Assembly (NCBI RefSeq): GCF_010731755.1
Contig: NZ_AP022589.1
Span: forward strand, 4,154,001-4,218,000
Direction: 5' to 3'
Source of the DNA: Mycolicibacter minnesotensis
Lineage (GTDB): Bacteria > Actinomycetota > Actinomycetes > Mycobacteriales > Mycobacteriaceae
DNA: 64,000 nt
Below, piece after piece: positions 5,253 to 53,445 of this stretch. The notes beneath the pieces were generated by a model that saw only the letters and a program-made list of their open reading frames with translations, was not told where the DNA came from and searched no databases. A program made the position numbers and the translations under genes. Each line of letters opens with the position of its first letter. Position 1 is the first letter of the stretch.

Positions 5253-6037
5253 GTGCCCAGCAGTTGTTCGCGCCTGGGACCTTCACCCCCGACCCGCGGC
5301 CAGCCGGTGTACCGGCGATGCTGGCCGCGCAGTATCGGCTGGAGCTGACCCTGCTGCTGCGCAACGGCGAGCAGCTGTTGTTGACGATGTTCATCCCGAT
5401 CACCCTCTTGGTCGGGCTGACCGTGCTGCCCCTCGGCCCCTTCGGCGAGGGCCATGCCGAGCGTGCCACGACGGTGCTGCCGGTGATCATGTCGTTGGCG
5501 GTGATCGCCACTGCATTCACCGGCCAGGCCATCGCGGTCGCGTTCGACCGGCGCTACGGAGCACTCAAACGCCTAGGTGCCACGGCATTGCCGGTGTGGG
5601 GTGTGATCGCCGGAAAGTCGTTGTCGGTGGCCACCGTTGTGCTGCTGCAATCGGTGTTGCTGGGCGCGATCGGTTTTGCGCTGGGCTGGCGACCGACGGT
5701 GGCCGGACTGGGTCTGGGCGCGGTGATCATCGCGCTGGGGACCGCCTGCTTTGCCGCGCTGGGTCTGCTGCTCGGCGGTAGTCTGCGCGCCGAGATCGTG
5801 CTGGCCGGCGCCAATCTGCTGTGGTTCGTCTTCGGGGGGTTCTCGGCCCTGACGGTGGAGACCGATCTGGTACCGAGCACGGTGCGCTGGCTGGCCCGTC
5901 TGACGCCCTCCGGCGCGCTCACCGAGGCGCTGGCGCAGGCATTGAGCGTCTCGGTTGACTGGTTCGGCATCGCCGTGGTGTGCGTTTGGGGCGTGGTGGC
6001 TGCCATCGGTGCGGTGCGGTGGTTTCGGTTCAGCTGA
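5249..6037 (+). CDS. ABC-2 type transporter permease (Rv1457c-like)
   Basis: This 262-residue membrane protein has about six hydrophobic segments in the ABC-2 permease pattern. A cytosolic N-terminus is followed by FIPITLLVGLTVL, VIMSLAVIATAFTGQAIAVAFDRRYGALKRL and later helices. The FDRRYGALKRLGATAL stretch is the usual coupling region that contacts the ATPase. It overlaps the upstream ATPase gene by four bases and would form the dimeric pore of the same exporter. Substrate is unknown. Confidence 0.92.
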   Translation: MSAQQLFAPGTFTPDPRPAGVPAMLAAQYRLELTLLLRNGEQLLLTMFIPITLLVGLTVLPLGPFGEGHAERATTVLPVIMSLAVIATAFTGQAIAVAFDRRYGALKRLGATALPVWGVIAGKSLSVATVVLLQSVLLGAIGFALGWRPTVAGLGLGAVIIALGTACFAALGLLLGGSLRAEIVLAGANLLWFVFGGFSALTVETDLVPSTVRWLARLTPSGALTEALAQALSVSVDWFGIAVVCVWGVVAAIGAVRWFRFS

Positions 6038-13700: not shown

Positions 13701-15800
13701 GTGACCACTGCTGCAGAGATCTCCGCTCTTACCGCCGCGCACCACCCCGCTGATTGGGCCGAGATCGACTCCGTCGCGGTCGACACCGCCCGGGTGCTGG
13801 CCGCTGACGCAGTGCAGAAGGTGGGCAATGGCCACCCGGGCACCGCGATGAGCCTCGCGCCGCTGGCCTACACGCTGTTCCAGCGGGTTATGCGCCACGA
13901 TCCCTCCGACACCGATTGGCTGGGCCGTGACCGGTTCGTGTTGTCCTGTGGGCACTCCAGCCTGACCCTCTACATCCAGCTCTACCTGGGGGGTTTCGGG
14001 CTCGAACTGGCCGACATCGAGGCCCTGCGCACCTGGGGCTCCAAAACCCCGGGCCACCCGGAGTTCCGCCACACCAAGGCCGTGGAGATCACCACCGGCC
14101 CGCTCGGCCAGGGGCTGGCTTCGGCGGTCGGCATGGCGATGGCCGCGCGCTACGAACGCGGACTGTTCGACCCCGATGCCGCCCCCGGGACGAGTCCGTT
14201 CGACCACTTCATCTACGTGATCGCCTCGGACGGCGACGTGCAGGAGGGCGTGACCAGCGAGGCGTCCTCGCTGGCCGGCGTTCAACAGCTGGGCAACCTC
14301 ATCGTGTTCTACGACCACAACAAGATCTCTATCGAGGACGACACCGCGATCGCGTTCAGCGAGGACACCGCGGCTCGCTACCGGGCGTACGGCTGGCACG
14401 TCCAGGAGGTCGAGGGCGGCGAGAACGTGGCCGGCATCGAAGAGGCGATCGCGGCGGCGAAGGCCGTCACCGACAAGCCGTCCTTCATCTCGCTGCGCAC
14501 GATCATCGGTTATCCGTCCCCGGGCAAGATGAACACCGGGGCCATCCACGGCTCCGCGCTGGGTGCCGACGAGGTGGCAGCCACCAAGTCCGCACTCGGT
14601 TTCGACCCGGAGAAGGCGTTCGACGTTCGTGACGACGTGATCACCCACACCCGTGGGCTGGTGACGCGAGGCCAACAGGCCCACGCCGAGTGGCAAGAGC
14701 AGTTCGAATCGTGGGCAGCCCGGGAGCCGCAGCGCAAGGCGCTGCTGGACCGGTTGCTCGCCGGTGAGCTGCCGCAGGGCTGGGACGCCGAGCTGCCGTA
14801 CTGGGAACCCGGTTCCAAGGCGGTCGCAACCCGCGCGGCATCCGGCAAGGTACTCAACGCCGTGGGTGCGAAGCTTCCCGAGTTGTGGGGCGGCTCAGCC
14901 GATCTGGCCGGCAGCAACAACACCACGATGGACGGCGTGAAGTCGTTCGGCCCGACCTCGATCTCCACCGGCGAGTACTCGGCCGACCCGTACGGTCGTA
15001 CCCTGCACTTCGGGATCCGTGAACACGCGATGGGTTCGATCCTGTCCGGCATCGTGCTGCACGGACCTACCCGCGCCTACGGCGGCACATTCCTGCAGTT
15101 CTCCGACTACATGCGGCCCGCGGTGCGCCTGGCGGCGCTGATGGACATCGATCCGATCTACGTGTGGACACACGACTCGATCGGGCTCGGCGAAGACGGC
15201 CCCACCCACCAGCCGATCGAGCACCTGGCGGCACTGCGGGCCATTCCCCGGCTGTCAGTGGTGCGACCGGCCGACGCCAACGAGACTGCCTACGCCTGGC
15301 GTACCGTGCTGGCCCGCGGCGCGGACAGCGGGCCGGTCGGGCTGATCCTCACCCGCCAGAATGTGCCCATCCTGGAGGGCACCGACGCCGAGGGTGTCGC
15401 GCGCGGAGGGTACGTGCTGGGGGGCCTCGATGCCGCCGGCGCCGAGCAGCCCGACGTCGTGTTGATTGCCACCGGATCCGAGGTCCAGCTCGCGGTAGAA
15501 GCGCAGAAGCTCTTGGCAGCCCAGGACATCAACGCCCGGGTGGTGTCGATGACGTGTCTGGAGTGGTTCGAATCGCAGCCGGTCGAATACCGCGACGCGG
15601 TGCTGCCGCCCTCGGTGTCGGCGCGGGTTGCCGTAGAAGCCGGTATCGCACAGTGCTGGCACAAGATCGTCGGCGACACCGGCGAGATCGTGTCGATCGA
15701 GCGCTACGGCGAATCTGCCGACTACCAGACGCTGTTCCGTGAGTTCGGCCTGACCGCTGAAGCCGTCGTCGCCGCGGCGATCAGAACTCTGGACAACTGA
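13701..15800 (+). CDS. tkt: Transketolase
   Basis: This thiamine-diphosphate enzyme exchanges two-carbon units in the non-oxidative pentose phosphate pathway. The protein has 699 residues from a GTG at 13701, where [11 protein letters not shown] matches mycobacterial Tkt; the frame is open upstream. Motifs include [16 protein letters not shown], the ThDP-binding [17 protein letters not shown] block with a downstream Asn, and the central [19 protein letters not shown]. It is the first gene of the run tkt-tal-zwf2-opcA-pgl, which makes the whole pentose phosphate pathway except 6-phosphogluconate dehydrogenase and the isomerase/epimerase. Confidence 0.97.
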
Positions 15801-41177: not shown

Positions 41178-41999
41178 ATGACTGTCGACTACACCGCGAC
41201 CGGCGATACCCTGACCTCGCTGCACCGAAACATGTGGGCGATGGGCGACTACGCCTTGATGGCCGAGCAAGTGATGGCCCCGATCGGCCCGATCCTGGTC
41301 GACGCCAGTGGCATCAGAGCCGGCGACCGGGTCCTCGACGTGGCTGCCGGGTCCGGCAACATCTCCATTCCGGCCGCCATGACCGGCGCCACCGTCGTCT
41401 CCAGCGACCTGACCCCCGAACTCCTGCAGCGGTCGCAGCTGCGCGCCATCGAGCACAACGTGCCGATGCAGTGGCACGAGGCCGACGCACAGGCGTTGCC
41501 GTTCGCCGACGGCGAGTTCGATGCGGTCCTGTCCGGGATCGGGGTGATGTTCGCCCCCGACCACCAGCGGGCCGCCGATGAGCTGATCCGGGTCTGCCGC
41601 CCCGGCGGCACCCTCGCCCTGGCGAACTGGACACCCGAGGGGTTCTTCGGACGGATGCTCACCGCAATCCGGCCGTATCGCCCCACCCAGACGCCGGGCG
41701 TGCCCCCGGCGGCATTGTGGGGCCGGGACGACTACGTCGCACACCTCTTCGGCGACAAGGCCACCATCATCGAAGCCCGACGCTGCATGCTGGTGGTGGA
41801 CCGGTTCGCCAATGCCCATGAGGCGCACGACTACTTCAAGACCCACTACGGTCCGACGATCGACGCCTACCGCACGATCGCCCACAATCGCGCGCTGGTC
41901 GCCGCACTGGATGCCGAGCTTCTCGAACTGGCCCAACGACACATGCACCACGGCCTCATGGGTTGGCAGTACTTGCTGCTCACCGCCCGGAGAACCTAG
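41178..41999 (+). CDS. Class I SAM-dependent methyltransferase (Rv1405c/Rv1403c-like)
   Basis: This 273-residue soluble protein has the SAM-binding motif I VLDVAAGSGNISIPAA near residues 52-67, an acidic motif II in VVSSDLTPELLQRSQ and a motif around DAVLSGIGVMFAPDH. An AGGAGG ribosome-binding site precedes the ATG by five bases. In M. tuberculosis two such genes flank the MarR regulator Rv1404 and are repressed by it. Here one copy lies upstream of and co-directional with the regulator. The substrate is unknown. Confidence 0.92.
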   Translation: MTVDYTATGDTLTSLHRNMWAMGDYALMAEQVMAPIGPILVDASGIRAGDRVLDVAAGSGNISIPAAMTGATVVSSDLTPELLQRSQLRAIEHNVPMQWHEADAQALPFADGEFDAVLSGIGVMFAPDHQRAADELIRVCRPGGTLALANWTPEGFFGRMLTAIRPYRPTQTPGVPPAALWGRDDYVAHLFGDKATIIEARRCMLVVDRFANAHEAHDYFKTHYGPTIDAYRTIAHNRALVAALDAELLELAQRHMHHGLMGWQYLLLTARRT

Positions 42000-42041
42000 G
42001 CACGCCAGCTGCGTTCGGGGATCCCGCGAATCATGCGCATG

Positions 42042-42072
42042 GCAACAGTGGCTCTGTGTAACACTGGGTTGC
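42042..42072. promoter_or_regulatory. Interrupted inverted repeat upstream of the MarR gene
   Basis: Arms GCAAC-AGTG and CACT-GG-GTTGC face each other, and an inner GTGT-A-ACAC palindrome lies between them. It is 50 bp upstream of the MarR start and could be an autoregulatory operator. A related GCAA-N10-TTGC lies upstream of the methyltransferase gene near 41040-41057. The symmetry is seen; binding is a guess. Confidence 0.35.
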
Positions 42073-42121
42073 ACCAGACCAGCGAAGCCCAGCTGACAAG
42101 CCTGAACCGAGGTGACACCGA

Positions 42122-42607
42122 ATGGCCACCGCAGATGTGGCGGCAACCGACGAGTCTGTCGATGCGATCACCGATGCACTACTGACCGCTTCGCGGCTCT
42201 TAGTGGCCATCTCGGCGCACTCGATAGCCCAGGTGGACGAGAGCATCACGATCCCCCAGTTCCGGACATTGGTGATCCTCGCCCGCCACGGTGCGATGAA
42301 TCTGGCCACCCTGGCGGGCCTGCTCGGCGTCCAGCCTTCGACGACCGGGCGGATGGTTGACCGACTCGTGGGCACCGGCCTGATCGATCGCCTGCCGCAC
42401 CCCACGTCGCGGCGTGAACTGGTGGCAGATCTGACCCCACGCGGACGAGACGTGGTACGCCAAGTCACCGATCAGCGCCGGGCGGCGATCGCCCACATCG
42501 TGGAGGCGTTACCCGCGACAGAGCGTCGGGGGCTGGTCAGCGCTCTGACCGCATTCACCGTGGCCGGCGGAGAGCCGTCCGGCTACGCCGAAGAGTTCGA
42601 CATCTAA
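42122..42607 (+). CDS. MarR-family transcriptional regulator (Rv1404-like)
   Basis: This 161-residue winged-helix regulator shows the MarR core: ITIPQFRTLVILARHGAMNL, LAGLLGVQPSTTGRMVDRLV as the recognition helix, and a wing around RLPHPTSRRELVADLTPRG. In M. tuberculosis the ortholog is linked to acid response and controls adjacent methyltransferases. It follows the methyltransferase after about 120 bp and probably has its own promoter. Ligand is unknown. Confidence 0.92.
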   Translation: MATADVAATDESVDAITDALLTASRLLVAISAHSIAQVDESITIPQFRTLVILARHGAMNLATLAGLLGVQPSTTGRMVDRLVGTGLIDRLPHPTSRRELVADLTPRGRDVVRQVTDQRRAAIAHIVEALPATERRGLVSALTAFTVAGGEPSGYAEEFDI

Positions 42608-42631: not shown

Positions 42632-44098
42632 TCACCGATCCTGAATCATGTTGCGCCACAGCTCCTGCGCCGTACAAACACACTCAGCGAGCGGCCTCGC
42701 GGTGTCGACACGATGCGCGGTGTCCCAGTCGAAGCCGTCAGCCGTCAAGGCCGCGGCCAGCTGTGGCGTCGCATCGGAATTACCCGGCACCCGGCTTCTG
42801 ATTCGTTCTGCGGCGACGGCAGCCGGCACAACACAATGGATCTCGGCGATCAGGGCAAGTCTGTCGGCGGCCAGTCTGCGGGCCTCGGCACGCAGCTTCG
42901 CATCGCGCCAGGTACCGTCCAGAATCACTGACTGACCATTGGCCAGGACCAGCCCTGCCCGCCGCAGGATCTCGTGGTAGACGGCGGCGACGTTGGCCGC
43001 TGTATACAGACCCGAGCCCAGTTCGCCGGGCTCTCCGCTCAGGTACCCGGATCCGCGCAGCTCCTTTCGAACATCGTCGGTCGAAATCACCACCGCACCC
43101 ACCTGTTCGGCAAGTCCTCGCGCAAGGGACGACTTTCCGGTTCCGGGACCGCCACCGACAAGCACCAGCCGCACCGCCCCGGCCTCAAGATGACTGACGG
43201 CGATAGACAGGTGGCGAGCCGCAGCCGCGGCGGCATCCGACTTTCCCTGGGTCAGCTGCACACAGTCAACTTTGGCCCGCACCGCCGCACGATAGGCGAT
43301 ATAGAAATCCCGCAGCGACGACGGCGCGGTGTCGCGCGAATATTCCGTGTACCGGCTCAGGAAGTAGTCGCTCAGATCGGTACGGCCGAGGAATTCCAGG
43401 TCCATCGCAAGGAAAGCGGCATCGTCGATGCGGTCCAGAAAGCGGAGCTCATCGTCGAATTCCAGGCAGTCGAGCAGCACCGGCTGATCGTCCACCCAGA
43501 AGATGTCATCGGCGAGCAGGTCGGCATGGCCGTCGACAATGCATCCTTCCTCGATACGCCGGGCGAACAAAGCTGCCCGGCCCGCGAGATAGTCGGCGGT
43601 AAGGCGCTCCACCCGCCGCAAGGACTCTGCCGGCACGGCCGTGCCGATGTGATGGCGCAAGGTCGGGAAGTTGTCGAAACACCTTCTGCGTATCGCTTCG
43701 GGCTTGCCCTGCAGGTTGATCCGCCGGCTGCGATCAGCTCGCTCGTGGAATTCAGCGAGTACGTCGGCGATCCTGTCGAGCACATGCTCGACGGGTTCGC
43801 CACGCGTCACCAGCGACGTAAGCCGATCATCGTGGTGATAGCGCCTCATCACGACAACCGGTTCCGGTGCGGAGCGGGAAAGGTCACCGAAGTGGGCGAC
43901 CCCGATGTAGCTGTCGGGCGCAAGTCGACTGTTGAGCGCGACTTCTCGCGCGCACGCCTCCTCGCGCTGCTCGACCCTCCGGAAATCGAGGAAGTCGGTC
44001 TGCACGGGCTTCTTGGCCTTGTAGGCCCGATCGCCGACCAAAACCACCACACCGGAGTGCGTTTCGTGGGCCGCGACATAAGGCACTGAAGACTCCAT
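42632..44098 (-). CDS. Two-domain kinase: APH-like domain fused to a P-loop kinase (Rv2004c-like)
   Basis: This 488-residue protein joins two phosphotransferase folds. Residues 1-300 resemble aminoglycoside-phosphotransferase-like kinases, with catalytic loop DGHADL (189-194), DDIF (197-200) and LLDCLEFDD (208-216). Residues 308-488 form a P-loop kinase of the AAA_33 type with GGGPGTGKS at 315-323 and an STDDVRKELRG lid region. The same architecture occurs in the DosR-regulon protein Rv2004c. Its substrate is unknown. It follows the universal stress gene by about 60 bp in the same direction and is the last gene of that run. Confidence 0.9.
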   Translation of the reverse strand: MESSVPYVAAHETHSGVVVLVGDRAYKAKKPVQTDFLDFRRVEQREEACAREVALNSRLAPDSYIGVAHFGDLSRSAPEPVVVMRRYHHDDRLTSLVTRGEPVEHVLDRIADVLAEFHERADRSRRINLQGKPEAIRRRCFDNFPTLRHHIGTAVPAESLRRVERLTADYLAGRAALFARRIEEGCIVDGHADLLADDIFWVDDQPVLLDCLEFDDELRFLDRIDDAAFLAMDLEFLGRTDLSDYFLSRYTEYSRDTAPSSLRDFYIAYRAAVRAKVDCVQLTQGKSDAAAAAARHLSIAVSHLEAGAVRLVLVGGGPGTGKSSLARGLAEQVGAVVISTDDVRKELRGSGYLSGEPGELGSGLYTAANVAAVYHEILRRAGLVLANGQSVILDGTWRDAKLRAEARRLAADRLALIAEIHCVVPAAVAAERIRSRVPGNSDATPQLAAALTADGFDWDTAHRVDTARPLAECVCTAQELWRNMIQDR

Positions 44099-44157
44099 GC
44101 CATCAAGTGTTACTCGGAGTGGGAACTGCGGACAGGGCAGCAGTTCGCGCGACGTGG

Positions 44158-45039
44158 TCAGCTCGGGTCTGGGCGGACCACGATCACCGGAGTCCTCGCG
44201 CCGTGCGCTACCGCGGAACTGACCGAACCCAGGAGTTGACTGGCAAACCCACCACGGCCGTGACTGCCGACGATGACAAGCTGCGCGTTATCGGCGGCCT
44301 TGAGCAACCAGCGGGCAGGCTGGTCGCAGAGCACCCGCCGCTCGACAGTCACATCCGGATATTGCTCCTGGTAACCGGCAAGCCGCTCTGCGAGCACCTC
44401 GTGCCCCTGCACTTCATAGCTACGCCGGTCCATGTTGAGGATCGGCATGACCCCCACATCGCTCCAGGCGTGCAGTGCCACCAGCGACACTCCACGACGG
44501 GAGGCCTCGTCAAATGCCAGCGCTGTTGCTCGTTCCGAGACCGGGGAGCCGTCGATACCCACGACCACCGGCGCATCCTTCGCGCCGGTACGGTCGTTGC
44601 CAATCACCGCGATCGGGCCGTAGCCATGGTGAATCAGGCTCGTGCTCACCGAGCCCAACAACAGGCGTCCGATAGAGCCGAGGCCAGTCGAGCCGGTGAC
44701 CGTCATCCAGCTGCCCTTGGTGGCACCAATCAACGTCGAGACCACTTGTGCGTATGCCATCTCGGCGTGCACCTCGGGCGATCCGGCCTCGCCCCGATTG
44801 GACTCGACCACCTCACGTGCCCGAGTGAGGATCCTGGTGGCCTCGTCGGCCTGCCAGGTCGGCACTCCCTCGTGCATCGGCCCGGGCGGCCATCCGGTCT
44901 CCAAGGGTGTCACCACATGCAGCAATGTGATCGGCAGCTGGCGCATGATCGCCTCCTGCGTGGCCCATGCCACCGCCGCATCAGCCTGCGCTGAGCCGTC
45001 GACCGCGACGACGATTCCCGGTGTTCCGACAGGTGACAT
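44158..45039 (-). CDS. Tandem universal stress protein
   Basis: This 293-residue protein has two USP domains. Each has the ATP-binding G-x2-G-x9-G-S/T loop, GSTGLGSIGRLLLGSVS at 116-132 and GSHGRGGFASQLLGSVS at 258-274, so both halves look able to bind ATP. The ATG at 45039 has GGAGGG at good spacing; the open frame upstream has no such signal. Tandem USPs of this kind are abundant in the mycobacterial DosR regulon. It lies between the phosphoribosyltransferase and kinase genes. Confidence 0.93.
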   Translation of the reverse strand: MSPVGTPGIVVAVDGSAQADAAVAWATQEAIMRQLPITLLHVVTPLETGWPPGPMHEGVPTWQADEATRILTRAREVVESNRGEAGSPEVHAEMAYAQVVSTLIGATKGSWMTVTGSTGLGSIGRLLLGSVSTSLIHHGYGPIAVIGNDRTGAKDAPVVVGIDGSPVSERATALAFDEASRRGVSLVALHAWSDVGVMPILNMDRRSYEVQGHEVLAERLAGYQEQYPDVTVERRVLCDQPARWLLKAADNAQLVIVGSHGRGGFASQLLGSVSSAVAHGARTPVIVVRPDPS

Positions 45040-45176
45040 CTGTACTGCCCTCCACTCATGTCGACCAGCCAATCGATCAGGCTCGACTGCGACGTTATTG
45101 CCCTCTGATGCGATTCGCAGGAGTCGTTGGACCTCAAGTCGAGTGCCATTGGCCCCACCGCTGCGCACGGCCGCTG

Positions 45177-45854
45177 CTACGCAGTCTGGCTGGCAAGCAG
45201 TTGGCAGACCTGCGCATCGGTGACCTGAGCGAAGTCCCTGTACGAATCTCCGACTGCGAGAAACGGGGTAGGTGTCGTCACGCAGACCATGTCGTCGACG
45301 GGGCCGGAGAGGGCCCGAAGGGTGGATTCCGGAGCCGCCGGAACGGCGATGACGATGCTGGACGGCTCGGCGTCCCGCAATGCCTGCACCGCCGCGAGGA
45401 TGCTGGCACCGGTGGCCAACCCGTCGTCAACGAGGATGACTGTCCGGCCTGCCACGTCCAGCGGTGGGCGGCCCCTGCGGTAGGCCGACTCCCGACGGCC
45501 CAACTCCCGACCCTCGCGTTCGGCGACATCACGCAGCTGTTGCGGCGTGATTCCCAGGTCACGAACCACATCGTCGTTGACGACGATCCGTCCCCCGCTG
45601 TCCAGCGCTCCTATCGCGAGTTCTTCGTGGCCAGGAGCGCCGAGTTTGCGCACGATAAACGCGTCCAGCGGTACCCGCAACGCCGCCGCGACCTCCCACG
45701 CCACGGGAATTCCACCCCGCGCCAAACCGAGCACGATGACGTCGCTGCGATCGCGATACACGCCGAGCAGACCAGCCAGCACCTGGCCTGCCTCCCTGCG
45801 GTCACGAAATCTCCTTCGCGGCGGCCATACTCCGGCCTCGGCCGCGCCGCTCAT
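45177..45854 (-). CDS. Phosphoribosyltransferase-family protein (Rv0571c/Rv2030c-like)
   Basis: This 225-residue type I phosphoribosyltransferase-fold protein has the PRPP-binding loop [13 protein letters not shown] at about 139-151. An N-terminal [18 protein letters not shown] and [18 protein letters not shown] match the domain found alone in Rv0571c and fused in Rv2030c, both DosR-regulon proteins. The nucleobase or other substrate is unknown. It is first in the leftward run PRT-USP-kinase. A DosR-like site lies about 80-100 bp upstream. Confidence 0.9.
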
Positions 45855-46406
45855 GGTGCTTTCCGCATGACGCCGTCTCCCTCGAATCGACGACTGATAG
45901 CACCTATTGCACCCCGAACTCCGCTATCGCGAAAGGGGGGACGAAGTCCCGAGTTCGGGGGACGATTGTCATTCGAATACCCACAGCCGGGCTGGCACTT
46001 CCTCCTTGTTAGTTACCTGCAAACTCTTGCGACAGAACAAATCCGGTGGTGCAATAGGCTTATCACTTCAGATACGGCAGCTGCCGAGTCGACAGCCACC
46101 GCCCCTTCATTGGAGGCACAGCTCATTTCCCACCGCAGCAAACACCACTGACGACATACCTGTTCTCGTGTCTCGCATGCACCGAAGCCGGTCTGGATTG
46201 TCGGTGCCTATGAGGCCGCCGTGTGCGTCTCCGAGATATCCCTGGTGACCCCATCAGTCAGCGGATACCCCACGCATAGGGCAAGTAGCCCGTAACGACA
46301 TCACCCGACGCCCGCCCCGCTTTGCCAGCACAGGACTGTCGATTCTGTTGCGCGGAAGGGCCGCTCCCGGCGGCGAGCGCGGTCCGTACAGAACGGAGAC
46401 CCGTTC
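45855..46406. other. 552-bp divergent intergenic region of the stress island
   Basis: No convincing gene is present; short frames here lack ribosome sites and family features. The region separates the leftward PRT-USP-kinase run from the rightward DUF732-nitroreductase-USP run, so it should hold both promoters. A DosR-like site sits at 45934-45953. It is visibly less GC-rich around 46010-46150, as expected of promoter DNA. A GGGC-AAGTA-GCCC repeat lies near 46280-46292. Confidence 0.6.
45934..45953 (-). promoter_or_regulatory. DosR-like box (good left half, weak right half)
   Basis: On the minus strand the sequence reads CTCGGGACTTCGTCCCCCCT. Against the DosR consensus TTSGGGACTWWAGTCCCSAA the first half matches well (TCGGGACTT). 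The second half is out of register because the GGGAC/GTCCC arms are three bases apart where the consensus has four. About 13 of 20 positions agree. It faces the phosphoribosyltransferase gene. Confidence 0.4.
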
Positions 46407-47249
46407 ATGAGTATCCCCAGGGCGATCTACCTCGGCACCATGATCACCGCGACGCTAGTGGCCACAGCCGCACTGCATCCCATCAGTACCGCCGCGGCAG
46501 ATCCGAACCAGGATGACCAATTTCTGGCCGTCCTCCACAGCAAGCAGATTCCCGCTATCGAGAACCCGCCGACGGTCATTGCCGCGGGCCATACCGTGTG
46601 CCGCAAACTCGACAGCGGAATACCGGCCGCCAATATCTTGGACGAGTTGCGGAACGACGCATACCAGATGGACCCGCTCCTGCATTCCCAACCGGGACGA
46701 GTCTCTGAGACCATGAGCCGATTCATCGCAGCGGCGGTCCAGATCTATTGTCCCGGAGATGAAAGCAAGATCGTTTCGCTGATGTTCAGCCTCGCTGAGC
46801 CAGTCGGCAACTCCCCGCGTCTCTTCACCGTGGCGGGCTACCGGACCCTGGCCGGCTGGCGCAGCACTTCAGCGGGGTTGTCGCTCGACACCGCGGCGAC
46901 CGGAGACATCGCCCAACCGCCGCCGGAGCTACCGTCGCCCAAGTCGCCGAAGGCGAAGATCCCGCATACTCCACGGGTTGTCACGAAACACCCCACGCCA
47001 CGGCAACCACCTCCGCCTCCGCAGATCGCGCCCCCGTCGGTACAACAGCTTCCGCCCCCGCCGCAGGCCGAGCCTCCGGCCGGGCGCCCGGAACCGGGCA
47101 GCGCCGCCGACGGCAGTGGGCCTGGTGATGGTGGCGGCGAACGCCCCGGCGGTGGCGACGGCCCGGTAGGGCCCCCACAAGACAACCCGGCAGAGCCATC
47201 ACCGGTACAACCACGGCCACCGGGAATGATCCAACTCGTTCCGTGGTGA
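46407..47249 (+). CDS. Secreted DUF732-like protein with Pro-rich tail
   Basis: This 280-residue exported protein has a signal peptide over about residues 1-31 (cleavage after STAAA). A DUF732-like helical domain follows at about 35-115, with FLAVLHSKQIP, VIAAGHTVCRKLDSG and AAVQIYCPGDE giving a cysteine pair. The C-terminal half is a Pro-rich then Gly-rich low-complexity tail (QPPPPPQIAPP and repeats). DUF732 proteins are common in mycobacteria and have no known function. It is the first gene of the rightward run in the stress island. Confidence 0.82.
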   Translation: MSIPRAIYLGTMITATLVATAALHPISTAAADPNQDDQFLAVLHSKQIPAIENPPTVIAAGHTVCRKLDSGIPAANILDELRNDAYQMDPLLHSQPGRVSETMSRFIAAAVQIYCPGDESKIVSLMFSLAEPVGNSPRLFTVAGYRTLAGWRSTSAGLSLDTAATGDIAQPPPELPSPKSPKAKIPHTPRVVTKHPTPRQPPPPPQIAPPSVQQLPPPPQAEPPAGRPEPGSAADGSGPGDGGGERPGGGDGPVGPPQDNPAEPSPVQPRPPGMIQLVPW

Positions 47250-47259
47250 GTCTCAGCAG

Positions 47260-47268
47260 AGTCCCGAA
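47260..47268. promoter_or_regulatory. DosR half-site upstream of the nitroreductase-like gene
   Basis: AGTCCCGAA exactly equals the right half of the DosR consensus, but the left half is not recognisable. It lies about 80 bp upstream of the start at 47349. Confidence 0.25.
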
Positions 47269-47348
47269 CCCAAGGAAGTACCAACGGCCCTAACGCCGGA
47301 CTCGGGATGCGGGGAACCATAGACGGCAGAGGCAGATCGGAGGCCGAA

Positions 47349-48332
47349 ATGTCCGCCTCGCGCACAACAGTCACGACAATCAGGAATGCGCTGTCGGCCG
47401 CTGGACGTGCACCGTCCTTGCACAATATTCAACCGTGGCGCTGGGTCCTAGACGCTGACGAGCTGCGCCTGTATCTGGACCGCAGCCGGGTGTTGCCGTC
47501 CGACCGCGGCGGACGAGAAGCAGTCATCGGCTGCGGAGCTGCGTTGGATCACCTGCGAGTGGCGATAGCCGCCGCTGGCATGAACGCCATCATCGAACGG
47601 CTGCCCAATCCCAACAACCCCGACCACCTCGCATCGATCCAGTTCACTCCGATGAGCTACGTCACCGACGGGCACCGTCTTCGCGCAGAGGCGATCTGGG
47701 CACGCCACAGTGACCGGCTGCCGCTGAATCCGCCCTCGAATTGGGCGGCGTTCGAGCCCGTACTGCGCAGCCGTATCAAGGAATACGAAGTGCAACTCGA
47801 TGTGCTGCCCGAAAGCGCCCGCGCCCGCTTGGCGCAAGCGTCGCAACTCACCGAGTCACTTCGCCTCTACGACTCCGCCTATCATGCCGAATTGCACCGG
47901 TGGGCAGTGCCATTCGCATCCTCTGAAGGTATTCCCTATGACGCATTGACATCGGCTACCGAAACCCAGCGAGTCGATGTCGGCCGCCGGTTTCCGACGC
48001 CACACCACGCGGAGCGCAGGGCCCAGATCAGCGAAGACAGGTCGATGGTCGCGGTGCTGTCCACCACGACCGACACGCGCGTCGATGCCTTGGCGGCCGG
48101 CGAGGAGCTCTCGGCGGTATTGCTGGAATGCACCATGGCGGGACTGTCCACCTGCCCGTTGACACATCTGACCGAGGTTCAGGTCGCGCGGGACATTGTC
48201 GAGACTCTGCTCGGAACCGTCACCCTCCCCCAAGTTCTCGTCCGGATAGGCACCGCCCCGGTCGCCGAGGACATTGCACCCCGCACCCCGCGCCGGCCGC
48301 TCGATGACGTCCTGACCGTTCTGGACGGATAG
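47349..48332 (+). CDS. Acg-type nitroreductase-like protein (Rv2032/Rv3131 family)
   Basis: This 327-residue protein is related to the mycobacterial Acg family: flavin-binding, nitroreductase-fold proteins with a lid that seem to sequester FMN rather than reduce nitro compounds. IRNALSAAGRAPSLHNIQPW with RWVLDADELRLYLD at the N-terminus and MAGLSTCPLTHLTEV near the C-terminus are characteristic. Family members in M. tuberculosis are strongly DosR-induced. GGAGG precedes the ATG at 47349. It is followed after 8 bp by a universal stress gene, so they form one unit. Confidence 0.9.
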   Translation: MSASRTTVTTIRNALSAAGRAPSLHNIQPWRWVLDADELRLYLDRSRVLPSDRGGREAVIGCGAALDHLRVAIAAAGMNAIIERLPNPNNPDHLASIQFTPMSYVTDGHRLRAEAIWARHSDRLPLNPPSNWAAFEPVLRSRIKEYEVQLDVLPESARARLAQASQLTESLRLYDSAYHAELHRWAVPFASSEGIPYDALTSATETQRVDVGRRFPTPHHAERRAQISEDRSMVAVLSTTTDTRVDALAAGEELSAVLLECTMAGLSTCPLTHLTEVQVARDIVETLLGTVTLPQVLVRIGTAPVAEDIAPRTPRRPLDDVLTVLDG

Positions 48333-48340
48333 GACGTCGA

Positions 48341-49201
48341 ATGGCGAAATCGCGATCCTCAGTGGGCAGTGTTGTCGTCGGCCTAGACGCTTCTCGCTCG
48401 GCAATGCAAGCCGTCCTGTGGGCAGTCGATGAAGCCATCCACCGCCAGATTCCGGTGTACCTGCTCTACGCCCTCGGCGAAGAAGCCGGTGGGCGCGACG
48501 ACGCGGAAAGCGACACTGCGGTAGCCGAACGGACGGTTGGCAGCGCCATGTCGATGATCGAAGCGCTGAAGGTTCCCGTCCAATTCGAAGCACAGATCGT
48601 GCGCAGCCGGCCCATCACGGCACTCCTGGATGCCTCGCGGTCAGCAAGCATGATTTGCGTTGGCTCCATGGGATTTCATCACTTGACGCGCGGGCGCATC
48701 GGTTCCACCTGGCCGGCACTGTTGACCTCCGCACGTTGCCCGGTGGCGGTCGTACCGCGGACCCATCAGCCCGGTTCCCGGGGAGTCGATCTGATACTCG
48801 CCGTGGTGGACAACGCCTCGACCGCAGACGATGTGCTGGAGCTCGGCGTCAGCGAAGCATGCCTTCGCGACGCACCCCTGCGCGTCTTTCTGCTGAGGCA
48901 CACTCACCACCGCGATTCCTGTCCGAAACCGATACCTGTGGATGGCCGCACAGTGGTGGAACGCCGAGTGGACCACTGGCGTCGCACGCAGCCGAAGCTC
49001 GACATCGAGATCGTCTGCGACCACAACGACCTGCTCAACTATCTGGAGCAGCTGCAACGCCACATCACCCCGCTCCAATTGATCGTCGTCGACCCGCGGC
49101 GTCCCGGGCCGCTGGATCTGCTGCTGGGCGTCGCGGCCCGAGCGCCGTTGGAGGCCGCCGGTTGTACCGTGATGACCTGCACGCGGCGCCAGTGGTTGTG
49201 A
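48341..49201 (+). CDS. Universal stress protein, second domain degenerate
   Basis: This 286-residue protein has a normal first USP domain: SVVVGLDASRSAMQAVLWAV at the start and an ATP loop GSMGFHHLTRGRIGST of the G-x2-G-x9-G-S form. The second half keeps the fold pattern (LILAVVDNASTADDVLELGV), but its loop, VVDPRRPGPLDLLLGVAARA, lacks the glycine pattern, so it probably does not bind ATP. It is the last gene of the rightward island run and converges with priA. Confidence 0.88.
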   Translation: MAKSRSSVGSVVVGLDASRSAMQAVLWAVDEAIHRQIPVYLLYALGEEAGGRDDAESDTAVAERTVGSAMSMIEALKVPVQFEAQIVRSRPITALLDASRSASMICVGSMGFHHLTRGRIGSTWPALLTSARCPVAVVPRTHQPGSRGVDLILAVVDNASTADDVLELGVSEACLRDAPLRVFLLRHTHHRDSCPKPIPVDGRTVVERRVDHWRRTQPKLDIEIVCDHNDLLNYLEQLQRHITPLQLIVVDPRRPGPLDLLLGVAARAPLEAAGCTVMTCTRRQWL

Positions 49202-52725: not shown

Positions 52726-53445
52726 TCAGCCCTGGGCCGCTTCGGCGCTCGGGGACCGGCCGAAGAAGAACCCGGCCGTGATCAGCAGCAACGCTGCCGC
52801 ATAGGTCCACCAGACCGGTACTGCGAGCATCTCGTTTCCCAACACGAATTTGCTGATCGCAATCATCGAGTCCGACACCGCAAAGCACACCGCACCGATC
52901 GCCGTCCAGGGCGTGGGCAGCTTCGCCAGCAGTGCGGCGCACACCATCGCGGCGAGCACACCGACGTACACCACCACAGGGACGGTCATCCCCTCACGGG
53001 CCATTCCGGGCCAGAGCCAGACCAGCATGGCCAGGCAACCGACGCAGACCACGCCCACTCCCACAAGCCCGCCGCGCGATACCTGGGCCAGCGGTAGCAG
53101 GGCGCCGAGAAAACACAGATGCGCCAACAGGAAAGCCGTCAGACCCGCGACGAAGGAGGGTTCCCACCACGGGATCGCCAGCAACCAGTCACCCGTCGCA
53201 GACAGGATGAGCGCCGGGATCAGCCACCTCGACTCCCGCAGGATCGGGTGTGCGACCGCGGCGAACGCGAGCAGCACCGCCATGGCCGCCTTGAACGCCG
53301 GCTGACCAATCCACTGCCCGGTCAGTTCCGCGCCGGGCCCCGACCGCAACGCGACCACCGTCAGGAAAACGCCGTAAGCCACGCCCAGCCATCCCGCGGC
53401 CGCCCACGAGGAGAAGACTCGGCGGGTTGCGTACGGTGTTTCCAT
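52726..53445 (-). CDS. YhhN-family membrane protein (Rv1401-like)
   Basis: This 239-residue protein has eight or so membrane helices and the YhhN/TMEM86 pattern, with [26 protein letters not shown] and [16 protein letters not shown]. Some eukaryotic relatives are lysoplasmalogenases, and the bacterial role is uncertain. Its ATG at 53445 overlaps the divergent esterase ATG by two bases on one CATG. Its place between priA and the lipase gene matches Rv1401 in M. tuberculosis. Confidence 0.88.

What the first reader, a model, noticed from the sequence alone, without database searches (positions are those of the whole stretch)
42632..49201. Six-gene DosR-type stress island inserted between the MarR gene and priA
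Two divergent runs (PRT-USP-kinase leftward; DUF732-nitroreductase-USP rightward) share a 552-bp promoter region. In M. tuberculosis priA sits next to the MarR/methyltransferase genes without this block. Five of the six families (Rv2004c-like kinase, tandem USPs, Rv0571c-like PRT, Acg-like protein) are hallmark DosR-regulon members, scattered over other loci in M. tuberculosis. The sixth, a Pro-rich secreted DUF732 protein, is not a known member and may be a new envelope component of the dormancy response.
Basis: partly seen in the sequence, partly recalled or inferred. Interest (0 to 1): 0.75.

Follow-up and report, generated by a model that had tools for sequence, protein, structure and literature searches.

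The report
Mycolicibacter version of DosR dormancy island
A block of six genes beside priA in a Mycolicibacter genome is mostly a rearranged form of the low-oxygen (DosR) gene island known from other mycobacteria, and the sixth, secreted-looking gene is probably a bystander that settled inside it.

Summary
The six ORFs and the 552-bp gap are real. Five belong to families that are DosR-controlled in other mycobacteria: kinase, tandem USP, phosphoribosyltransferase (PRT), Acg flavoprotein, second USP. In other mycobacterial genomes they cluster with each other and often with dosR; in one Mycolicibacter-like relative the same MarR-priA gap also holds dosR, a dosS-like gene and hydrogenase genes. 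The window's genome has dosR-dosS 3.5 Mb away. A DosR-box-like matrix learned without Mycolicibacter sequence ranks five block sites 2, 4, 6, 12 and 15 of 63,985 window positions; the PRT and USP1 promoters carry the window's only two close box pairs (score 6.5 or more). The block is thus very probably a lineage-specific form of a known DosR island: pieces lie at priA in 15 of 16 Mycolicibacter loci and in none of 64 other mycobacterial loci, in the sequence held. Corrections: the PRT is the N-terminal remnant of a PRT-esterase (Rv2030c-like), not Rv0571c-like; USP1 and Acg have boxes of their own; the DUF732 gene has no DosR-like box, ends before the Acg box, and lies near island genes only in Mycolicibacter, so 'new dormancy envelope component' is unsupported. 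Hypoxia induction was not testable here.

The parts
42632..44098 (-). Kinase-like protein (C-terminal P-loop AAA_33 domain); the likeness to Rv2004c/MAB_3902c is by architecture and neighbourhood, not by a sequence search against those genes; second gene of the USP1-kinase pair
   Evidence: one match in each of 44 of 60 genus genomes
44158..45168 (-). USP1, tandem universal stress protein (TB31.7/Rv2623-like); likely start about 45039
   Evidence: relatives about 294 aa
45092..45097 (-). TAACGT, -10-like hexamer of the USP1 promoter, offset 38 from the start of the proximal box; TANNNT at offset 38-39 in 13 of 13 USP1 promoters compared
45120..45135 (-). DosR-box-like site, proximal box of USP1 (rank 6 of 63,985 window positions)
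45142..45157 (-). DosR-box-like site, second box of USP1, 22 bp upstream of the first (rank 4)
45177..45854 (-). Phosphoribosyltransferase: N-terminal domain of a PRT-esterase (Rv2030c-like) protein, esterase domain absent here
45936..45951 (-). DosR-box-like site, proximal box of PRT (rank 15; two mismatches to the stringent published consensus; the orthologous site is a perfect match in L002 and L003)
45958..45973 (-). DosR-box-like site, second box of PRT, 22 bp upstream (rank 2)
46016..46168 (+). Conserved non-coding element upstream of the DUF732 gene; similar sequence in 7 of the 8 other DUF732-bearing Mycolicibacter loci; function unknown
46407..47249 (+). DUF732 protein with a signal-peptide-like N-terminus (by eye) and Pro-rich C-terminus; probably not part of the DosR units
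47276..47291 (+). DosR-box-like site AAGTACCAACGGCCCT upstream of Acg and downstream of the DUF732 stop (rank 12)
47307..48332 (+). Acg-family FMN-binding nitroreductase-like protein; likely start about 47349
   Evidence: PDB 2ymv, E 3.6e-108
48341..49201 (+). USP2, divergent universal stress protein; similar genes lie directly upstream of dosR in L107, L114 and L116

Best explanation
The block is a reduced, rearranged DosR-regulon island of the Mycolicibacter lineage. Under low oxygen, NO or CO the DosS sensor kinase would phosphorylate DosR (genes near 717 kb); DosR~P would bind the paired boxes of the PRT and USP1 promoters (at USP1 the proximal box centre lies about 30 bp upstream of a -10-like hexamer, near -42) and a single box before Acg, switching on PRT, USP1-kinase and Acg-USP2. 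By analogy the products slow growth and protect the resting cell: USPs (growth restraint by ATP binding, as for Rv2623), Acg (flavin sequestration), the kinase (substrate unknown). DUF732 is a further transcription unit that settled between the PRT and Acg promoters. Shown here: gene families, DosR and DosS in the genome, clustering with dosR in other genomes, conserved boxes and their spacing. Inferred: binding, transcription units, induction, protein functions, and relocation of the island to the priA site.
For: DosR, DosS (GAF-GAF-HisKA_3-HATPase) and an Acg-like nitroreductase side by side in this genome, with a perfect stringent box upstream of that Acg-like gene. Across 60 genus genomes: kinase with full-length PRT-esterase within 30 kb in 23 of 28, with DosR within 30 kb in 24 of 44, with Acg within 1 kb in 26 of 42. 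In G022 the MarR-priA gap (about 31 kb) holds kinase-USP1-dosS-like ... [NiFe] hydrogenase and HypF/HypD genes ... Acg-USP2-dosR. De novo palindromic motif gGGGaCntanGtCCCc from 28 non-overlapping non-coding stretches without Mycolicibacter, ahead of any unrelated motif found; in the window 5 of its 20 best sites lie in the three block promoter regions (1.2% of positions), reached by 0 of 1000 column-permuted matrices; the only two pairs 18-26 bp apart at score 6.5 or more in 64 kb are those of USP1 and PRT. The best USP1-promoter site ranks 1-5 within its own locus in 11 of 11 Mycolicibacter loci with USP1. Published (passages read): MAB_3902c, MAB_3903, MAB_3904 are DosRS-dependent and counted among hypoxia-induced genes (PMC10034137); M. 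avium MAV_2494-2508 (PMC11876180); acg, hspX and Rv2030c are DosR-controlled (PMC3110807).
Against: No expression or binding data for this organism. The motif result depends on how stretches are cut: a first set of 38 counted four divergent promoters twice, and with these removed but start codons still included the runs found start-codon-like palindromes and no block sites; the result quoted uses stretches without the start region. At width 14 only 1 block site is in the top 7 (6.1% of permuted matrices) but 4 in the top 20 (0.1%); the published consensus used untrained gives 1-2 in the top 20 (20% and 4.3%). The cut-offs top 7, top 20 and pair distance were chosen after a first look. Two of the window's three best sites (5275, 52978) are not in the block. 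A semi-strict pattern is not enriched genome-wide (9 hits, control 17). The Acg box is weak in L011 (rank 118) and L007 (rank 23).
Confidence: 0.82

Rival explanations
1. The whole six-gene block, DUF732 included, is one DosR-controlled set and the DUF732 protein is a new secreted component of the dormancy response.
For: DUF732 lies between two DosR-type promoters, 57 bp before the annotated Acg ORF, and keeps that place in L001-L003. A non-coding element upstream of it is conserved.
Against: Best box upstream of DUF732 ranks 311; the Acg box lies after the DUF732 stop; homologs lie within 30 kb of island genes in 2 of 23 genomes (one search scored at most 41 candidates per genome); L004 and L006 keep DUF732 without Acg, and L007, L008, L009, L010, L013 and L016 keep Acg without DUF732 at priA.
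Confidence: 0.15
2. The genes are general stress genes under another regulator (for instance a stress sigma factor) and the box-like sites are chance or relics.
For: Stringent consensus imperfect in the window; semi-strict pattern not enriched genome-wide; motifs of other regulators were not scanned.
Against: Ranks and 22-bp pairing of boxes at two promoters, conservation of the USP1 box with a fixed distance to a -10-like hexamer in 13 of 13 promoters; physical linkage of the kinase to DosR in 24 of 44 genomes.
Confidence: 0.1
3. The block arrived in the Mycolicibacter ancestor by horizontal transfer as a genomic island rather than by relocation within the lineage.
For: G+C 0.62-0.66 in the block against 0.70-0.73 on the priA side and 0.66-0.73 on the other (1-kb windows); not seen at priA in the 64 other loci.
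Against: No tRNA found in the window; one kinase match in each of 44 genomes, 71-83% identical to the window's within Mycolicibacter against 63% or less elsewhere, as vertical descent would give. No tree was built and no search for mobile elements was made.
Confidence: 0.15

Closest known systems
M. abscessus MAB_3902c-MAB_3903-MAB_3904 (PMC10034137, passages read)
   Same: Rv2004c ortholog, nitroreductase and USP with consecutive gene numbers; DosRS-dependent by RT-qPCR and among the hypoxia-induced genes
   Different: No PRT, tandem USP1 or DUF732 named next to them in the passages read; sequence not compared here
M. avium MAV_2494-MAV_2508 cluster (PMC11876180, passages read)
   Same: Clustered USPs, nitroreductases and a sensor kinase proposed to work with DosR, induced at low oxygen
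   Different: Larger, with further oxidoreductases; sequence not compared here
M. tuberculosis acg / hspX-Rv2030c-pfkB-Rv2028c (PMC3110807, passages read)
   Same: Acg divergent from the operon that carries Rv2030c; DosR-controlled
   Different: No hspX or pfkB in the block, and the PRT-esterase is reduced to its PRT domain; that Rv2030c is a PRT-esterase is recalled
DosR island in G022 (unnamed Mycolicibacter-like genome)
   Same: Same MarR-priA site, same kinase-USP1 and Acg-USP2 pairs
   Different: About 31 kb, with a second DosR, a DosS-like gene and [NiFe] hydrogenase genes; no DUF732 match in that genome at E 1e-6
Streptomyces coelicolor OsdR regulon (PMC5069765, passages read)
   Same: DevR-like regulator with a similar palindrome and stress genes clustered around it
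   Different: Other genus; sequence not compared here

Membership tests
DosR (DevR) regulon | Genome encodes DosR and a cognate DosS-type sensor | tested here: met
   DosR: PDB 3c3w E 1.6e-117; next ORF DosS: GAF, GAF, HisKA_3, HATPase_c, PDB DevS E 3.2e-68
DosR (DevR) regulon | DosR boxes at the promoter, often several and the proximal one overlapping -35 (PMC3029386, passages read) | tested here: met
   By sequence only: PRT and USP1 box pairs 22 bp apart, fixed distance to a -10-like hexamer at USP1; one box at Acg; none at DUF732
DosR (DevR) regulon | Genes of families known as DosR targets and clustered with DosR in other mycobacteria | tested here: met
   Kinase, USP1, PRT-esterase, Acg and USP2-like genes; DUF732: not met
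DosR (DevR) regulon | Induction by hypoxia/NO/CO that depends on DosR | not testable with these tools
   No expression data held for this genome
Acg family FMN-binding oxidoreductase | Score above the NCBIfam NF047509 cut-off | tested here: met
   314 bits against 199; PDB 2ymv
Rv2030c-type PRT-esterase | PRT domain followed by an erythromycin-esterase-type domain (PF05139) | tested here: not met
   Only the PRT domain in the window; both domains in L003
Tandem universal stress protein (TB31.7/Rv2623) | Two Usp domains along the solved structure | tested here: met
   Two Usp stretches; E 6.3e-73 over residues 43-333 to 3cis
DUF732 | Score above the Pfam PF05305 cut-off | tested here: met
   51.7 bits against 22.4

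The most novel reading that the evidence does not exclude
The priA-fmt gap of Mycolicibacter is a swap site for low-oxygen genes, in which each species keeps a different subset of DosR genes, and a secreted Pro-rich DUF732 protein with its own conserved 150-bp upstream element has become a clade-specific partner of the DosR response under a regulator other than DosR.
Probability: 0.15. Interest if true: 0.5.

Novelty: new member of a known kind. Interest (0 to 1): 0.3.

Why it matters
It extends known DosR islands to the Mycolicibacter lineage, suggests that the island moves and erodes as modules (kinase-USP1, Acg-USP2, PRT-esterase) that keep their promoter boxes, and gives a natural series of partial islands for asking which DosR targets matter. 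It also corrects the tempting idea that a neighbouring secreted protein must belong to the dormancy response.

Tried and rejected
Mtb-type consensus TTSGGGACTWWAGTCCCSAA (recalled): no match in the window with up to 3 mismatches. Motif learning went through four versions: with coding sequence it found a coding signal; with 38 non-coding stretches it gave a DosR-like motif at widths 14 and 16 but other motifs at 18 and 20, and four divergent promoters had been counted twice; with these removed but start codons kept it found start-codon-like palindromes and no block sites; with the start region cut off as well (28 stretches) the DosR-like motif came first by a clear margin at widths 14 and 16. 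The report quotes. Semi-strict pattern over the whole genome: 9 hits, control 17; of the nine loci, two sit before Acg-family genes (L119, L124) and one before another gene (L121); the other six are inside called ORFs or have no called ORF around them. Rfam on 45800-46500: nothing. RNA folding of 46016-46170: z -1.0, no sign of structure. The DUF732-linked element has no second copy in the genome. No tRNA in the window. A paper search for Mycolicibacter with DosR gave 16 papers (listing seen only; the term also matches Mycolicibacterium); by title none is about a Mycolicibacter DosR island. USP2 was not searched across the genus (unanswered, not repeated).
Full report
What is there. The genome is a Mycolicibacter by its PriA: the nearest named priA locus is M. 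arupensis at 94% identity. The window is G000:C1:4154001-4218000 of a single 4.22-Mb contig.

One gene is mislabelled. In L003 and L009 the PRT is the first third of a 681-aa protein (784 aa as called in L001); the L003 protein has PF00156 and then PF05139, erythromycin esterase, at 431 bits. In the window the similarity to L003 stops at 45184 and resumes at 45169, opposite the end of the L003 gene, so the esterase domain is absent while the PRT frame is open; in L002 only fragments of the gene are left. That Rv2030c has this architecture is recalled. The window's PRT is 73% identical to the L003 protein, while the stand-alone PRT matches of other genomes are at 64% or less.

Where the block occurs. 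Among 80 priA loci (the best 80 of 487 matches) the 16 of the Mycolicibacter clade (L001-L016; L004 is named only Mycobacterium sp.) carry, next to priA, the kinase in 10, USP1 in 11, Acg in 11, USP2 in 5, PRT or a fragment in 4, DUF732 in 7, and at least one of these in 15 (hand count; L014 has none). In the other 64 loci no match to kinase, USP1, PRT, Acg or USP2 passed the cut-off in the sequence held; 56 of the 64 show MarR and/or fmt on the same stretch, 8 do not (hand count). L020 has a DUF732 match about 9 kb from priA. The block is therefore old in Mycolicibacter and mosaic, not a fresh insertion in this genome.

The genes are a known set. Over 60 genus genomes drawn evenly, own genome included, the kinase is in 44, one match each; G035 is a weak partial match. 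Of those 44, 28 also have full-length PRT-esterase, within 30 kb in 23; all 44 have a DosR match, within 30 kb in 24; 42 have an Acg-family match, within 1 kb in 26. Some genomes are drafts in many contigs, so genes on different contigs count as not near. Looked at closely, L107 with L108, L110 and L114 combine kinase, Acg, USP2-like and PRT-esterase genes with dosR and a dosS gene in one cluster. USP2-like genes (27-54% identical) lie directly upstream of dosR in L107, L114 and L116. In G022, which resembles Mycolicibacter (kinase 77%, PriA 90%), the roughly 31-kb MarR-priA gap holds kinase, USP1, a DosS-like kinase, HypD, HypF and [NiFe] hydrogenase genes, Acg, USP2 and a second DosR directly before priA. 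So in the window USP2 abuts priA where G022 has dosR in between. G022's PRT-esterase lies about 23 kb from its kinase, on the other side of fmu.

Regulation. This genome has one DosR-like match at E 1e-60 or better, at 717 kb, followed by DosS and an Acg-like nitroreductase gene with a perfect stringent DosR box upstream (consensus from PMC6448022, passages read). The stringent box is perfect before the PRT in L002 and L003, has one mismatch in L009 and two in L001 and in the window. To avoid leaning on a recalled consensus I learned a palindromic motif from island promoters of G002, G006, G018, G029, G045 and G053, which by kinase identity (63% or less) lie outside the Mycolicibacter clade. 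The first version (38 stretches) had counted four divergent promoters twice; without them but with start codons kept, the runs found start-codon-like palindromes and nothing in the block. With the start region cut off and no stretch shared, 28 stretches gave GGGaCntanGtCCC (width 14) and gGGGaCntanGtCCCc (width 16), ahead of the next unrelated motif by about 11 and 15 log-likelihood units. With the width-16 matrix five block sites rank 2 (PRT distal, 45958), 4 (USP1 distal, 45142), 6 (USP1 proximal, 45120), 12 (Acg, 47276) and 15 (PRT proximal, 45936) of 63,985; three in the top 7 and five in the top 20 were reached by 0 of 1000 column-permuted matrices. With width 14 it is one in the top 7 (6.1% of permuted) and four in the top 20 (0.1%); the published consensus used without training gives one in the top 20 (width 14, 20%) or two (width 16, 4.3%). 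The top-7 and top-20 cut-offs were set after a first look. The only two pairs 18-26 bp apart at 6.5 or more in the window are those of USP1 and PRT, both 22 bp apart. Within their own loci the best USP1-promoter site ranks 1 in 7 and 2-5 in 4 of 11 Mycolicibacter loci; the best Acg-promoter site ranks 1-23 in 10 of 11 and 118 in L011 (for L008 and L009 the Acg stretch is shared with a divergent gene). The USP1 box is followed by TANNNT at offset 38-39 in 13 of 13 promoters, which would put the box centre near -42. The Acg box can be followed by eye in the 11 promoters laid side by side (L011 and L012 not among them, and L007 has one extra base); in the window it lies after the DUF732 stop. No box was seen directly upstream of the kinase or USP2 (first matrix), as expected for second genes of pairs.

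DUF732. Best box upstream ranks 311. Homologs at E 1e-6 or better occur in 23 of 60 genomes, within 30 kb of a kinase, PRT-esterase, DosR or Acg match only in G000 and in G016, which has a Mycolicibacter-like block at priA; one search scored at most 41 candidates per genome. A non-coding element at 46016-46168 has similar sequence upstream of DUF732 in 7 of the 8 other DUF732-bearing Mycolicibacter loci (L001, L002, L003, L004, L006, L011, L012; not found in L109) and, among the loci held, in no other apart from the window's own stretches; it has no second copy in the genome, no Rfam match and no clear fold. I read DUF732 as an independent unit with its own upstream control.

How it most likely works. 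DosS-type sensing of oxygen, NO or CO, DosR~P binding to the boxes, and transcription of PRT, USP1-kinase and Acg-USP2. Rv2623 is described as regulating growth by ATP binding (PMC2682197, listing seen) and Acg of M. smegmatis as sequestering flavins (PMC8125079, passages read); the kinase substrate and the role of a lone PRT domain are unknown. In M. [quoted passage not shown] in M. avium a cluster of USPs and nitroreductases is induced at low oxygen (PMC11876180, passages read); in M. tuberculosis acg, hspX and Rv2030c are DosR-controlled (PMC3110807, passages read).

Verdict. A real and coherent feature, but of a known kind: a lineage-specific DosR island at a new place, partly eroded, with a probable bystander gene.

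Noticed in passing
window 46016-46168: Conserved non-coding element upstream of DUF732, found with DUF732 in 7 of 8 other Mycolicibacter loci that carry it, no second copy in the genome, no Rfam match, no clear fold; includes the palindrome CGGCAGCTGCCG.
   Followed up: partly
window 45169-45184; L002 about 15,250-15,620: The PRT-esterase gene was shortened in two different ways in the clade: loss of the esterase domain in the window, loss of most of the gene in L002.
   Followed up: partly
G022 (L106, L115, L116): The MarR-priA gap of this relative is about 31 kb and holds a second DosR, a DosS-like gene, [NiFe] hydrogenase and maturation genes and other genes not identified here.
   Followed up: partly
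L117:7743-8720 (G000, 3.05 Mb): A third Acg-family gene in the own genome with the top-ranking box-like site of its 16-kb stretch directly upstream.
   Followed up: partly
window 41178-42607: MarR and the methyltransferase gene are co-directional here but convergent in many other mycobacterial priA loci, and gave no match in L004-L016.
   Followed up: no
window 5275-5290 and 52978-52993: Two of the three best box-like sites of the window lie outside the block; their genes were not looked at.
   Followed up: no
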